DNA of 64,000 nt, from NCBI GenBank assembly GCA_019634625.1, contig JAHCBA010000008.1, forward strand, positions 124,001-188,000, read 5' to 3'. This document shows positions 15,897-37,970 of the stretch, piece by piece. The notes under the pieces are model-generated. The model saw nothing but the letters and a program-made list of their open reading frames with translations, did no database searches and was not told where the DNA came from. Origin of the DNA: Verrucomicrobiia bacterium (GTDB lineage Bacteria; Verrucomicrobiota; Verrucomicrobiia; Limisphaerales; CAIMTB01). The translations under genes were made by a program, and so were the position numbers. Positions within the stretch are counted from its first letter, which is position 1, and the number at the start of each line of letters is the position of its first letter.

Positions 15897-17942
15897 ATGT
15901 CGGAAGATCCGAAGCCCACCGATAATCCCCGCGCCCCCCGTGGCGGCGACCCGCGCGTCCCCACCCGGGGATGGCTGTTTCTCATCGCAATCCTCGGGTT
16001 CCTTCCACTCCTCTTCATGCTCCGGCGTCAGGCCGACACGAAGTTCCACCCGCTCTCGCCGTCCGAGTTCTTCTCCAAACTCGAGTCCGGGCAGATCGTT
16101 CAGGGGACCATCACCTTCGATCCCCAGTCGCCCCTGCAGGAGATCACCGGCAGATACCTTGCCACCTCCGAGTCCGCTTCCGGCAGCCTGATCGGCAGCG
16201 ACGGCTCGACGGCCCGCGAAACACCCTTCGTCACCCGGGTCGTTCTCGTCGAGGACGACGTCAAGGATCTGCAGCGCAATTCGCGCTTCGAGGTCAAGAC
16301 ACCCAACACCTACCTGATGAACGTCTTCGTCACGGTGGTGCTTCCCTTCCTCCTCCTTGCCGCCCTGATCTACTTCTTCTTCATCCGGCAGATCAAGATG
16401 GCGGGCCGCGGCGCCCTCAGCTTTGGAAAGAGCCGGGCCCGGATGCTCACCAAGGAGAAGAACAAGACCACCTTCAAGGACGTCGCCGGGGTCGAGGAGG
16501 CCAAGGACGAGGTCTCGGAGCTGGTGGATTTCCTCCGGGACCCCAAGCGCTTCCAGAAACTCGGCGGCCGGATCCCCAAGGGCATCCTGATGGTCGGCCC
16601 GCCCGGTACCGGCAAGACGCTCCTTGCCAAGGCCATCGCCGGCGAGGCGGATGCCGCCTTCTACAGCATCAGCGGCTCGGACTTCGTGGAGATGTTCGTC
16701 GGCGTGGGGGCCAGCCGCGTGCGCGACATGTTCGAGCAGGCCCGCAAGAACACCCCCTGCCTGATCTTCATCGACGAGATCGACGCCGTCGGGCGCAGTC
16801 GCGGCGTCGGCCTCGGCGGCGGCAACGACGAGCGGGAACAGACCCTCAATGCGCTCCTCGTCGAGATGGACGGCTTCGACACCCAGGAGGGCATCATCAT
16901 CATCGCCGCCACCAACCGGCCCGATGTCCTGGATCCCGCCCTTCTCCGCCCCGGCCGCTTCGACCGCCAGATCACCGTCAATCTCCCCGACGTCAAGGGA
17001 CGCGAGGCCATCCTCAAAGTCCATGCCCGCAGCGTGAAGCTGGACCCCATGGCGGATCTCGCCGTGATCGCCCGGGGCACCCCCGGGTTCTCCGGGGCGG
17101 AACTCGCCAACCTCCTCAACGAGGCCGCACTTCTCGCCGCCCGCACGGGGAAGAAGGCCGTCGGCATGAAGGAACTCGAGGAGGCCCGCGACAAGGTCCG
17201 CTGGGGCCGCGAACGCCGAAGCCTGGCCATGACCGACGAGGAGAAGCGCTTCACCGCCTGGCACGAGGCAGGCCACGCCCTGGTCAATGTCCTCCTCAAC
17301 CACACCTACCCGCTCCACAAGGTCACCATCATCCCTCGCGGTCAGTCCCTCGGTTCCACCATGTACCTTCCCGAGAAGGACATCATCAACCAGGGCCGCA
17401 AACAGATGCTGGATGTCATCGCCGTGATCATGGCCGGGCGGATCGCCGAGGAGGTGATCTCGGGCGACATCTCGACCGGAGCCTCCAGCGACATCAAACA
17501 GGCCACCAACCTCGCCCGCTCCATGGTCTGCCAGTGGGGCATGAGCAGCAAGCTGGGCATGGTTCAATACGGGTCCGACGACGAATACTTCCTCGGGCGC
17601 GACATGGTCCGTCGCAAGGACTACAGCGAAGCCACCGCCCGCGAGATCGACGAGGAGGTGCGGAAGATCATCGAGGTCCAAAACCAGGTCGCCCGCGAAC
17701 TGATCGAGTCCCACCGGGCCCACCTCGAGACCATCGCCAAGGCGCTGCTCGAATACGAGACCCTGGAGGGTTGGCAGGTCCGGGAGATCATCCAGACCGG
17801 CAAGTTCACCCCCCCTGAGCCGACCCCCAACGTCGATCCGCCCTCCGGTGCCGACGCCGCCACGGTGCTGCCGGAGGTCCCCAAGCCACCGGCTCCGCCC
17901 AAGCTCCCCGGCCTCGGCGCCCCGGCCCCTGCGGCCATCTGA
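15897..17942 (+). CDS. ftsH: ATP-dependent zinc metalloprotease FtsH
   Basis: A 681-residue membrane AAA+ protease that degrades misassembled membrane proteins and regulatory factors. Two membrane helices (about residues 25-43 and 146-164) flank a small periplasmic domain. The AAA module has Walker A GPPGTGKT (about 234), Walker B LIFIDEID (about 289) and the second region of homology RPGRFDRQ (about 355). The zinc protease site is HEAGH (456-460). The C-terminus is Pro/Ala-rich. It is the usual length for the family and starts with ATG (MSEDPKP). Confidence 0.97.
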
Positions 17943-17987
17943 TCCCCCAAACTCGCCCTCGCCTCGGCGGTGGCTCCCTGCCACACT

Positions 17988-18017
17988 CCCCGGCCCGCGC
18001 GGCTCGCCGTGCCGGGG
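17988..18017 (+). terminator. Possible weak hairpin between ftsH and alaS
   Basis: CCCCGGC and GCCGGGG are separated by 16 bases, 27 bases before the alaS start. There is no T run, so it is at best a weak attenuator or simply GC-rich coincidence. The two genes are in the same direction, 101 bases apart. Confidence 0.25.
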
Positions 18018-18043
18018 ATCTCTTCCTTGCCGCCATGCACGTG

Positions 18044-20776
<2,733 letters not shown>

Positions 20777-35450: not shown

Positions 35451-35573
35451 ATGGCCTGGCGCATCCCCGAGGCGGACATCGAGCGGGTCAAACTGTGGGG
35501 CAGTTGCCACCTGCTTCGCCACACCTGCGCCCGCACATGCTCGAGGGCGGGCCCGACATCCCCAGCATCCAGC
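35451..35573 (+). pseudogene. Remnant of a tyrosine recombinase (integrase) C-terminus
   Basis: The plus strand encodes GSCHLLRHTCA and, in the next frame, HMLEGGPDIPSIQQ. Joined by a one-base correction near 35532, they recreate the integrase box with the catalytic HLLRHT His and Arg (normally H-L-F-R-H-T-x-A-T-H-M-L-E-G-G-A-D-I-R). The N-terminal catalytic domain is missing. The catalytic Tyr is not clearly present; YTHAAEYHDLQ at about 35714 may be a trace of it. It is a decayed fragment, evidence of past integration events here. Confidence 0.75.
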
Positions 35574-35786
35574 AACAGAGATTCTGCGGCGTTTGGAAGA
35601 GCTTCAAAGCGGCCAGGTTCAAGCCATCCCGGGAGACGGGGTGTCCGCCAGAATCCGCCAAATCGTGGGTCGGTCAATCCCCACTCCTTCCACCCGGCCG
35701 CCGATGCCGAGTACACGCATGCGGCTGAGTATCACGACCTCCAACAGCTCGAGGTGTATGCAGACGCAAAAAGGGTCCATCAGAGA

Positions 35787-35987
35787 TCAGGCCTTGCAGT
35801 CCAAGCGATCTTCAAAATCATCCGGGGTCAGCCAGTGAGCAGAATTCTTGTCCTCGATTCGCTTGGCCACCGCTGATGCGTATCGACTGTCCTCCCGATG
35901 TCGTATATGGAACATGAACGCCATCAACTCGTTCTGCGCCTCAATTGGAAGAGCGGCGATCTGGTCTTTCAGCTCCTGAACGCTCAT
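35787..35987 (-). CDS. Small antitoxin-like protein, orphan
   Basis: A 66-residue acidic protein: MSVQELKDQIAALPIEAQ, then NELMAFMFHIRHRED, ending TPDDFEDRLDC. Length, the opening helix of the form xxELxxxIxxLPxxxQ and the short charged tail resemble antitoxins of relBE/parDE-like modules. No toxin follows on the same strand: the downstream sequence is the integrase remnant. The ATG at 35987 is chosen because upstream frame is low-complexity. It is either an orphan antitoxin or the survivor of a broken pair. Confidence 0.55.
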   Translation of the reverse strand: MSVQELKDQIAALPIEAQNELMAFMFHIRHREDSRYASAVAKRIEDKNSAHWLTPDDFEDRLDCKA

Positions 35988-36512
35988 GACGGCTTTATGG
36001 GGCAGGTTTCTTGGCGTGGGCAAGCACCCGCGTCCAGTGTCATGCCGGTGGCATCGTCCATCTGGGCGCCTTGGCGCCGGCACCGGCACCACCGTCCACG
36101 GTTCCGCTCTGTCCGTGCTGCGGTCGGCCCATGCAATTCCTGCGACGGATCCCCTCTCCGTATCGCCAGCGCAGGCCTCCGTAGCCAATCACTCCCGTGT
36201 CATCATCTCCCAACCTGTCCTGTGCGCCGCCATCGCCATCTTTCCGCGAATGGGTCACGGGTGTCCTGTGCCCCGCACACACCCACGCCGTGACGAATGG
36301 GGCAAAATCCAGGCTCCGGACGACGTCAGGCTCCCCGAGGGTCACCCCCGAACGCTGGGAAGGGCCTCAAGACCGAGACACGATGTACCACTTGCGGCTT
36401 TCGAGGTGGGGTGTTGTGCCAACCTGACGGTACTTCAAAGGTTTGGCTGAAAACATAAGCGCCATAGCCGGTCTGGCCGACTGATCCAATTCCGCCTTCC
36501 TCACCCGGGCTC
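35988..36512. other. Accessory gap without recognised gene
   Basis: No named family is recognisable. A minus-strand frame at 36040-36345 (about 100 residues) and a 32-residue minus-strand frame starting MALMFSAKPLKYRQV at about 36462 are present but have no supporting ribosome site or known motif. Base composition is less GC-rich and more mixed than in flanking core genes, consistent with acquired DNA. Confidence 0.4.
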
Positions 36513-36578
36513 GTTCAACCAAGGGTGTAGTTGCTGGCTCCGCTTCGCTCCGCAGCAATACACCCTTTATTGTTAGTC
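36513..36578 (-). other. attC-like integron recombination site
   Basis: A 66-base imperfect palindrome. Read on the minus strand it opens GACTAAC (RYYYAAC with one mismatch) and closes GTTGAAC (a perfect GTTRRRY core). Between them a 9-base stem AAGGGTGTA/TACACCCTT and a 6-base stem TTGCTG/CAGCAA are separated by one unpaired base, as the extrahelical bases of attC sites are. The 16-base centre (GCTCCGCTTCGCTCCG, plus strand) is unpaired. Size, cores and bulge fit integron attC sites; no integron integrase gene is in the window. Confidence 0.6.
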
Positions 36579-36706
36579 GGAACCGCCGGAATCACCCGAC
36601 GGCCCAGCGTCGTAGGTTCCATGATCAGTGTGGTCATGATTGCATTAATTTCTTCTTTGTGGTGCTCTGCGACGTAAGTCACACGTTTGAGATTCGGAGC
36701 TGGCAT
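36515..36706 (-). CDS. Small cassette-like ORF ending in the attC-like site
   Basis: A 63-residue frame starting MPAPNLKRVTYVAEHHKEE at 36706. An AAGGA ribosome site sits six bases before the ATG. Its TGA lies in the terminal core of the attC-like site, and its direction agrees with the site's orientation, as expected for the gene of an integron cassette. I do not recognise the product. The last 20 residues are encoded by the palindrome itself and are probably not informative. Confidence 0.4.
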   Translation of the reverse strand: MPAPNLKRVTYVAEHHKEEINAIMTTLIMEPTTLGRRVIPAVPTNNKGCIAAERSGASNYTLG

Positions 36707-36837
36707 GGTCGTTCCTTGTGAATGGAAGGGGTTGGGCAGAACGCCTGCGTGAGCGACAGAAGGCAGCGGGAAACGGGCTCAAGAATGGAAGCGAATGTGG
36801 AGGCTGCCTCCTGTTCGCTCGACGCAATGGTCGATGC

Positions 36838-37138
36838 CTACTGGAAGAGGCGTGCCTTGATCCACGAAGGATCTCGTCTCATGTCGAGAATTGCCCAGAT
36901 CATCACTGCCTCCTGCTCAACTGTGTAAAAGATCCCGAACGGGAAGACACGACTCAGTAGCCGATGATAATCCTGATAGACAACCCGATGGATCCCAGCG
37001 TAGAGCTCGGAGCGACTCAATGTCAGCGCGGAGGCATGAAGTAAAGTAATCGCCAAGTCCTTGATCTTGGGCTTCGTAAAATCGATATCCGTCGGAAAGG
37101 TCGTCCAACGCCTCGTCGGAGATCCGGATCAGCCTCAT
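36838..37138 (-). pseudogene. RelE/ParE-family toxin gene with a frameshift
   Basis: The first part reads MRLIRISDEALDDLSDGYRF, then GLGDYFTSCLRADIESL. The second part, one frame over, reads LYAGIHRVVYQDYHRLLSRV, then PFGIFYTVEQEAVMIWAIL and ends RRDPSWIKARLFQ. Together they make a full ParE/RelE-type mRNA-interferase or gyrase-poison toxin of about 99 residues. The break is near 37003-37012, where one extra base would explain it. The start overlaps the antitoxin stop (ATGA). Loss of the toxin leaves the antitoxin gene intact. A sequencing error or programmed shift cannot be excluded. Confidence 0.8.
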
Positions 37139-37344
37139 GTGCGTCCCAGGCTGCCTTTGACGGCGTCCCAGTCATGCATCTGGGAACCTCCACTGCGATA
37201 TCGAGCGCGTCGAGCATCCAATAAGTCTCTGATTTCCTGAGAGATAGGAGACGAATCGGAACGTGCGCGGAGATCCTCCCAGAGCGTTTCCATGATCTGG
37301 AACTTCTCTGCCATCGGAAGCGCCTTGAGCTCTTCAACCGTCAT
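37135..37344 (-). CDS. Addiction-module antitoxin (putative addiction module component family)
   Basis: A 69-residue antitoxin: MTVEELKALPMAEKFQIMET then LWEDL, ending W-D-A-V-K-G-S-L-G. This layout (helix with LP...EK..I.E.LW..L, then a W-x-x-V-K-x-x-L tail) is that of the short antitoxins paired with ParE/RelE-like toxins. It overlaps its toxin gene, which is frameshifted. It would neutralise the toxin and repress its own promoter. Confidence 0.8.
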   Translation of the reverse strand: MTVEELKALPMAEKFQIMETLWEDLRARSDSSPISQEIRDLLDARRARYRSGGSQMHDWDAVKGSLGRT

Positions 37345-37703
37345 AAGGGAAGCATAGCCAAGAGGTACGGCCCGGGCGACCGAAATTCCATCGAACGATT
37401 CCGCTCACCGATCCCGCGAAGCGGGATTTGGTGCAGCGCCTGTTCGACGCGTTCGTATGACATGTGCAATCTCTCTGCCAATGCCCTGACTTTCTCCTCT
37501 GGAAACTCGCCAGTGAGGTGACTGTTCAGATCCCCAAAGGGGGGGCGCGGGTGCGGTGCAAGTGATGGCTCCGGCGAGGACGGGTAGGCGGGGAGGGTCG
37601 CTGTTGTTGCGGCTTTCCGCAGTAGAGGGTCCTGGGAAGTCGGGAAATCGGAGCAGGAGGGCCTCGGTCGCGGGCTTGTCCGCGCCGCTGCGAGGTTGCC
37701 CGC
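37345..37703. other. Accessory gap without recognised gene
   Basis: No gene could be supported. A short inverted repeat ATCCCGC/GCGGGAT lies at about 37411-37426. On the minus strand a fragment reading EFPEEKVRALAERLHMSYER is protein-like but has no start or recognisable family. The right half is C/G-rich and probably belongs to the decayed IS66 element. Confidence 0.4.
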
Positions 37704-37970
37704 TCAGGGGCCGGCGGCCGGAACCTCGGGCATGAAGGGTTGTCCGAGCGCCAGGCGCCGGCAGGCGTCCCAGAGATTGTGTCCCTGCTTGCGGCAGGTG
37801 GAGAGGTAGCTGCGAATGCGCGCGAAGAGGTTTGCCCCGCGCAAGGTCCGGAAGCAGCCGCTGATTTTCTGCTTCACCTTGATCATGCGAATGTCCTGCT
37901 CGCCATGGTTGTTGGTGAAGGGGACCTTGGGATCGATCAGGTAGGCCGGCACCGATGGCATCCGCCACAA
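37704..37970 (-). pseudogene. IS66-family transposase, C-terminal fragment
   Basis: The 88-residue frame carries VPFTNNHGEQDIRMIKVKQ, then ISGCFRTLRGANLFARIRSY and LSTCRKQGHNLWDA, the classic C-terminus of IS66 TnpC (N-N-x-x-E-R-D-I-R-M-x-K-V-x-Q-K-x-S-G-x-F-R). Only this end remains: the zinc-finger and main catalytic parts and the accessory tnpA/tnpB genes are absent. The conserved E-R/Q-D Glu is still present. It is a relic marking an older insertion. Confidence 0.85.

What the first reader, a model, noticed from the sequence alone, without database searches (positions are those of the whole stretch)
36513..36706. attC-like site with a cassette-type ORF but no integrase
The 66-base site has near-consensus terminal cores, two stems, one extrahelical base and a central unpaired loop. 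A small frame with a good ribosome site runs into it in the right orientation. Toxin-antitoxin genes nearby are typical integron cargo. This may be a lone integron cassette or the scar of a former array in a verrucomicrobium.
Basis: partly seen in the sequence, partly recalled or inferred. Interest (0 to 1): 0.6.

Follow-up and report, generated by a model that had tools for sequence, protein, structure and literature searches.

The report
Transposon end hairpin in cassette array
The "lone integron site" is the folded end of a decayed IS91-type transposon that inserted backwards into a recombination site of a real but decaying integron cassette array, in a bacterium that does keep an integron integrase gene elsewhere in its genome.

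Summary
The 66-base hairpin exists, but it is not the attC of the 63-aa ORF. A covariance model built from 16 attCs on integrase-bearing contigs gives it 8.2 bits, in the opposite orientation. A degenerate attC at 36736-36835 (-) lies on the far side of a toxin-antitoxin pair. This pair is a real gene cassette: a homologue between attCs occurs in a congener. The genome is not integrase-less: one full-length intI, one truncated intI and at least 15 further attC hits lie on five other contigs. The reported hairpin ("X") is a repeat found in 29 of 293 genomes of the order. Complete copies show that X is one end of a ~2.6 kb element carrying an IntI-like tyrosine recombinase and an IS91-type transposase. 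The element sits backwards inside the R'' box of a canonical attC; joining its flanks restores that attC in three of four copies tested. The window keeps only the hairpin and the last ~75 codons of the transposase. Relatives lie forward in arrays or beside intI. I favour cassette-like, IntI-driven movement; transposase-driven insertion is not excluded.

The parts
36506..36579 (+). Conserved hairpin 'X' (reported site 36513-36578 plus the conserved CGGGCTC before it): attC-like terminal hairpin of the IS91-type element E; R''-like box GTTCAAC, stem with one bulged G, end ...TATTG|TTAGTC
   Evidence: Repeat family in 29 of 293 genomes of the order; end of full-length E copies L156, L157, L141; 8.2 bits in attC model R1
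35978..36202 (+). Decayed C-terminus of the IS91-type transposase of E (54% identity to residues 294-369 of the L156 copy, two stops)
   Evidence: G000:C8:159978-160202; E element otherwise deleted
36572..36578 (-). GACTAAC: R'' box of the cassette attC into which E inserted; the rest of that attC would lie beyond the lost left end of E
   Evidence: by comparison with complete copies L156, L157, L218; inference for the window
36736..36835 (-). Degenerate attC: intact L''/L' stem with extrahelical C and A (GCGT[C]GAGCGA[A]CAG / CTGTCGCTCACGC), R'' decayed AAC->GAC
   Evidence: 11.1 bits unfiltered; stem pairing 12.3 of 13
37390..37448 (-). Canonical 59-base attC: GTCGAAC...CGTTCGAT, both extrahelical bases (G, A), TTCG loop
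   Evidence: 38.1 bits, E 3e-7 over the window; score 9.9 where 20 Markov windows give none at 8.5 or more
37135..37344 (-). Antitoxin gene of the cassette (PF09720, putative addiction module component)
   Evidence: cassette homologous (72% over 586 bases) to one between attCs in L154 of a genus mate
36838..37138 (-). ParE-like toxin gene, frameshifted (N-terminus 37138-~37050, C-terminus in frame 37056-36838)
   Evidence: weak PF05016 match E 0.034 for the C-terminal frame; reading of both frames
36515..36706 (-).
37704..37967 (-). IS66 transposase C-terminal fragment that truncates the array upstream of the canonical attC
   Evidence: PF03050 E 1.3e-8

Best explanation
The window holds a decayed integron cassette array reading on the minus strand: [cassette cut by IS66] - attC 37448-37390 - antitoxin/ParE cassette - attC 36835-36736 - small cassette - R'' box GACTAAC. 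A ~2.6 kb element E had inserted into that last R'' box in reverse orientation; later deletion left only its end hairpin X (the reported site) and a piece of its transposase gene. E consists, in its own orientation, of (G)TTGAAC-TAAGCC..., a tyrosine recombinase gene, an IS91-type (HUH, Y2) transposase gene, ...GGGCTT-GTTCAAC and the hairpin X ending ...G(TT). Shown: the element, its ends, its position inside attC R'' boxes, restoration of a canonical attC on joining the flanks in three of four copies tested, and complementarity of its start with the 5' end of X, so that the closed circle would carry one long attC-like hairpin. Inferred: E moves like a gene cassette, as a circle whose X is folded as single-stranded DNA and recombined by the host integron integrase at G|TT boxes, forward at attI or R', backward at R''. 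E's own tyrosine recombinase and the transposase may supply or assist steps. The reported site is thus attC-like in origin but belongs to E, not to the ORF that runs into it.
For: X is conserved at 85-98% with unrelated flanks across families of the order. Full E copies L156/L157/L141 share ~2.6 kb between X and the far end; the proteins are IS91 transposase (NF033538, 309.8 bits) and a tyrosine recombinase closest to TIGR02249 (139.5 bits, below the 265-bit cut-off). The far end of E abuts a model-supported attC in 10 of 16 element starts examined. Joined flanks give canonical attCs in L213, L240 and L218 (scores 13.8, 10.4, 12.3; R''/R' GCCTAAC/GTTAGGC, GTCGAAC/GTTCGGC, GCCTAAC/GTTAGCC). The box beside X carries AAC in 29 of 36 copies; an array-strand ORF ends within 15 bases of X in 8 of 13 copies looked at. 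X and attCs on the same contig are in opposite orientation in 12 of 12 cases. Circle joints fold into one continuous hairpin in four elements of three subfamilies with different stem sequences. Forward placement beside intI in L039 (Planctomycetota) and L021, and forward inside arrays in L225 and L227. The window keeps 54% identity to the transposase C-terminus.
Against: X scores poorly as attC (8.2 bits): no second extrahelical base and no normal central spacer. The shared GTT at both ends means the exact cut cannot be placed, so HUH insertion next to GTT fits the junctions as well. Copies of this subfamily are always backward, which standard attI x attC(bottom strand) recombination does not produce. 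Six of 16 element starts are not next to a recognisable attC, and the fourth joined site (L214) is not canonical. No circle, excision or transfer has been observed. In the window itself the far end of E and the rest of the target attC are gone, so the insertion is inferred from relatives.
Confidence: 0.72

Rival explanations
1. E is an ordinary rolling-circle (HUH) IS91-family element whose end hairpin X is its oriIS, and the transposase inserts it into single-stranded folded attC sites next to GTT. The resemblance of X to attC is convergent.
For: The transposase is a clear IS91 member; end hairpins and no target duplication suit HUH elements; the flank next to X usually begins GTT, close to the GTTC that I recall for IS91 (own knowledge). 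Group IIC-attC introns show that a non-integron element can target R'' in reverse orientation (PMC7923331).
Against: It does not explain why the element start GTTGAAC(T)AAGCC is complementary to GGCTTGTTCAAC at the base of X in distant subfamilies, nor placement beside intI. A tetranucleotide target would not give attC so consistently.
Confidence: 0.3
2. The element is moved by its own tyrosine recombinase at attC-like core sites, independently of IntI.
For: The recombinase is intact in full copies, with catalytic R, K, HxxR, H and Y, and is closer to IntI than to XerC/D by profile score. GIsul2 integrase moves an ISCR2 unit by site-specific recombination (PMC9376610).
Against: It lacks the ~30-residue insertion of integron integrases, which is tied to single-strand attC recombination (PMC7790495 abstract).
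Confidence: 0.25
3. One reading: X is a genuine attC of the cassette with the 63-aa ORF, a lone cassette or the scar of an array.
For: The R'' box and a gene end just before X in several genomes look like gene-to-attC; true attCs lie next to it.
Against: 8.2 bits and opposite orientation in the model; the ORF is not conserved; X continues into an IS91-type element in complete copies.
Confidence: 0.05
4. X is a conserved transcription terminator or a chance palindrome.
For: Hairpin directly after stop codons; 0.12 chance sites per shuffled window.
Against: No run of T after the stem; cross-family identity of 85-98% with unrelated genes; continuous with transposon sequence.
Confidence: 0.02

Closest known systems
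ISCR28 / IS91-like elements in sul4 modules with attC at or right after the element (PMC12772301)
   Same: IS91-type transposase in integron context with an attC-like site at its end, suggested to be shuffled as a cassette
   Different: Here: Verrucomicrobiota and other environmental phyla, a linked tyrosine recombinase, a defined start complementary to its own hairpin, and reverse insertion inside attC R''; sequence relation to ISCR28 not tested
Group IIC-attC introns (PMC7923331)
   Same: Insert at the R'' box of attC (TTGT/T), opposite to the cassettes, also in CALINs
   Different: Retroelements with a ribozyme; E is a DNA element with HUH transposase and tyrosine recombinase
IS1111-attC group (ISKpn4, ISPst6; cited in PMC11187229)
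   Same: Insertion sequences that target one end of attC sites
   Different: DEDD transposase guided by seekRNA; no attC-like hairpin described there as part of the element
IS91 family elements carrying an additional tyrosine recombinase gene (own knowledge of the ISfinder literature; not found in the library)
   Same: Same gene pair
   Different: Link to attC targeting and cassette-like ends not known to me
Integron gene cassettes / CALIN
   Same: Canonical attCs and the TA cassette in the window
   Different: Array decayed and interrupted; integrase on other contigs

Membership tests
attC site (applied to the reported hairpin 36513-36578) | R'' RYYYAAC and R' GTTRRRY boxes | tested here: met
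   GTTCAAC and GTTAGTC (one mismatch) on +
attC site (applied to the reported hairpin 36513-36578) | L''/L' stem with extrahelical bases at the standard positions and an unpaired central spacer | tested here: not met
   One bulged base at a non-standard place, no second one; 5.2 in the canonical finder, 8.2 bits in R1
attC site (applied to the reported hairpin 36513-36578) | Recombination by an integron integrase | not testable with these tools
   needs an assay
attC site (applied to 37390-37448) | R boxes, L stem, two extrahelical bases, significant covariance-model score | tested here: met
   38.1 bits, E 3e-7; model trained without window or own-genome sites
Integron gene cassette (toxin-antitoxin unit 37390-36736) | Gene(s) between two attCs of one orientation, found in another array | tested here: met
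   homologue between model-supported attCs in L154; the second attC here is degenerate
[quoted passage not shown]
   One strong and one degenerate attC; no intI reported on the window's contig C8, but intI on C17 and C10
IS91 family element (full copies of E) | Y2 HUH transposase with IS91 zinc-binding domain | tested here: met
   PF04986 E 9.5e-43, PF14319 E 6.1e-24, NF033538 309.8 bits
IS91 family element (full copies of E) | oriIS/terIS ends and rolling-circle transposition | not testable with these tools
   end structures described; activity unknown
Integron integrase (IntI), applied to E's recombinase | IntI-specific insertion and curated score | tested here: not met
   insertion absent; 139.5 bits against cut-off 265
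Gene cassette, applied to E | Begins TTRRRY after a G and ends in an attC whose R'' pairs with that start | tested here: inconclusive
   TTGAAC start and GTTCAAC box pair exactly, but X is not a canonical attC

The most novel reading that the evidence does not exclude
A widespread family of IS91-type transposons with a linked tyrosine recombinase has become self-contained integron gene cassettes. Each carries its own attC-like hairpin, complementary to its own start, and is moved by integron integrases forward into attI/R' and backward into R'' of existing attCs, so that transposon and cassette mobility are combined in one element.
Probability: 0.45. Interest if true: 0.75.

Novelty: new variant of a known kind. 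Interest (0 to 1): 0.6.

Why it matters
Elements that prey on attC sites are known as group IIC introns and IS1111-type insertion sequences. This one joins a rolling-circle transposase, an IntI-like recombinase and an attC-like end, and inserts backward into R''. If IntI moves it, transposons can enter and leave integrons as cassettes, and strand choice by IntI can be studied on a natural 'wrong-way' site. It also gives a warning: attC-like hairpins in arrays can be transposon ends, and ORFs read into them can be false. The window also shows that integron arrays with toxin-antitoxin cassettes occur in this environmental lineage (probably Verrucomicrobiota).

Tried and rejected
Rfam at gathering threshold: nothing in the window. 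Own-genome copies of the hairpin: none. X as an attI-like site: rejected for the order's copies, because genes end at X rather than start there. X as a terminator: no T-run. An empty-site comparison at rpsO (L148) was inconclusive, because the relatives differ upstream of the gene. A structure prediction was not needed. The covariance model was not trained on window or own-genome sites.

Full report
Observation. The 66 bases at 36513-36578 are as described in outline: GTTCAAC, a stem with one bulged base, a loop and GTTAGTC when read on the plus strand. I therefore built a covariance model (R1) from 16 attCs found next to integron integrases in other genomes. The 16 sites come from 11 contigs of several phyla and show strong covariation: 92% of cells paired against 69% in shuffles, covariation score 0.66 against 0.19. 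Over the window the model finds one significant site, and it is not the reported one: 37390-37448 on the minus strand, 38.1 bits, E 3e-7. The reported site reaches 8.2 bits without filters, and only on the plus strand. A degenerate attC at 36736-36835 reaches 11.1 bits; its inner stem is intact with both extrahelical bases, but its R'' has decayed.

Array. The two minus-strand attCs flank an antitoxin (PF09720) and a frameshifted ParE-like toxin. A 72% identical unit lies between model-supported attCs in another genome of the same genus (L154), so this is a genuine cassette. Upstream the array is cut by an IS66 fragment.

Genome. The statement 'no integrase' is wrong for the genome. Contig C17 carries an integrase of 436 bits to TIGR02249 with the IntI-specific insertion. 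C10 carries a truncated intI followed by three attCs up to the contig end. Further attCs lie on C20, C5, C29 and C42.

What the reported hairpin is. The hairpin has no second copy in its own genome, but 85-98% identical copies with unrelated flanks occur in relatives: 24 of 97 genomes with a 96-base query (weak matches included) and 29 of 293 with the hairpin alone. Wherever attCs are recognised on the same contig, the hairpin ('X') has the opposite orientation: 12 of 12 including the window. Read along the array, X follows a box with AAC at the right place in 29 of 36 copies, and an ORF often ends within 15 bases before it. Past X the copies L141, L156, L157 and L203 continue into related sequence; in the first three this is a common ~2.6 kb element E that encodes a 354-aa tyrosine recombinase and a 374-aa IS91-type transposase. 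The window retains 54% identity to the last ~75 residues of that transposase at 35978-36202, with two stops, followed by X.

Ends of E. In its own orientation E begins (G)TTGAAC-TAAGCCGC and ends GGGCTT-GTTCAAC-hairpin-ATTG(TT). The first part is the reverse complement of the base of the hairpin, so a closed circle would fold into one long hairpin. This holds in subfamilies with different stems (L218, L223). The start of E abuts an attC found by the model in 10 of 16 cases. Joining the flanks of three copies restores canonical attCs with scores of 13.8, 10.4 and 12.3; a fourth (L214) does not. E thus sits inside R'' of attC, backwards. In L225 and L227 related elements lie forward within arrays, and in L039 (Planctomycetota) and L021 they lie forward next to intI, where the first cassette belongs.

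Mechanism. Shown: ends, position, orientation, restoration of attC. Inferred: cassette-like movement by IntI with X as a non-standard attC. The recombinase of E lacks the IntI insertion, which argues against it acting on folded attC alone. HUH-driven insertion into folded attC next to GTT is the main rival: the GTT shared by both ends hides the exact cut, and reverse insertion at R'' is known for group IIC-attC introns (PMC7923331). Bouvier et al. show that the first extrahelical base directs strand choice (PMC2727003), which makes a natural site with the bulge on the other arm worth testing.

Novelty. Elements targeting attC are known (group IIC-attC, IS1111-attC). attCs at the end of ISCR28, an IS91-like element, were reported in sul4 modules with the suggestion that they are shuffled as cassettes (PMC12772301). 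I found no report of an IS91-type element with a linked recombinase inserted backwards in R''; the library lacks most subscription papers. I rate this a new variant of a known kind.

Noticed in passing
   Followed up: yes
L014 (C10) 16746-20000: Truncated intI with an array of three attCs and small cassette genes running into the contig end: the genome's integron is partly unassembled.
   Followed up: partly
L001 (C17) 575-1645: Full-length intI with the IntI-specific insertion, at the very start of its contig; the open frame extends upstream to 524 aa.
   Followed up: partly
L001 (C17) ~1660-2720: A block of several hundred bases downstream of this intI is repeated almost exactly in tandem.
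   Followed up: no
L142, L143, L144, L155: A second form of the hairpin, fully palindromic out to GTTAGGC/GCCTAAC without the IS91-side sequence; its origin (solo attC, or repair product of the hairpin) is unexplained.
   Followed up: partly
L223, L226, L228, L237, L185: Other IS91-type elements carry a different end hairpin (GTTCAACCCGGGAATGCA...TACATTCC...G|TT) with the same box at its base, suggesting a larger superfamily.
   Followed up: partly
window 35787-35983 (-): Antitoxin-like ORF (MSVQELKDQIAALPIEAQNELMAFMFHIRHRED...) with only a weak DUF3775 match, possibly another decayed cassette gene.
   Followed up: no
window 35451-35790 (+): Frame fragments reminiscent of a tyrosine recombinase C-terminus (HLLRHTCA, HMLEGGPDIPSIQQ in another frame); no Pfam match.
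   Followed up: partly
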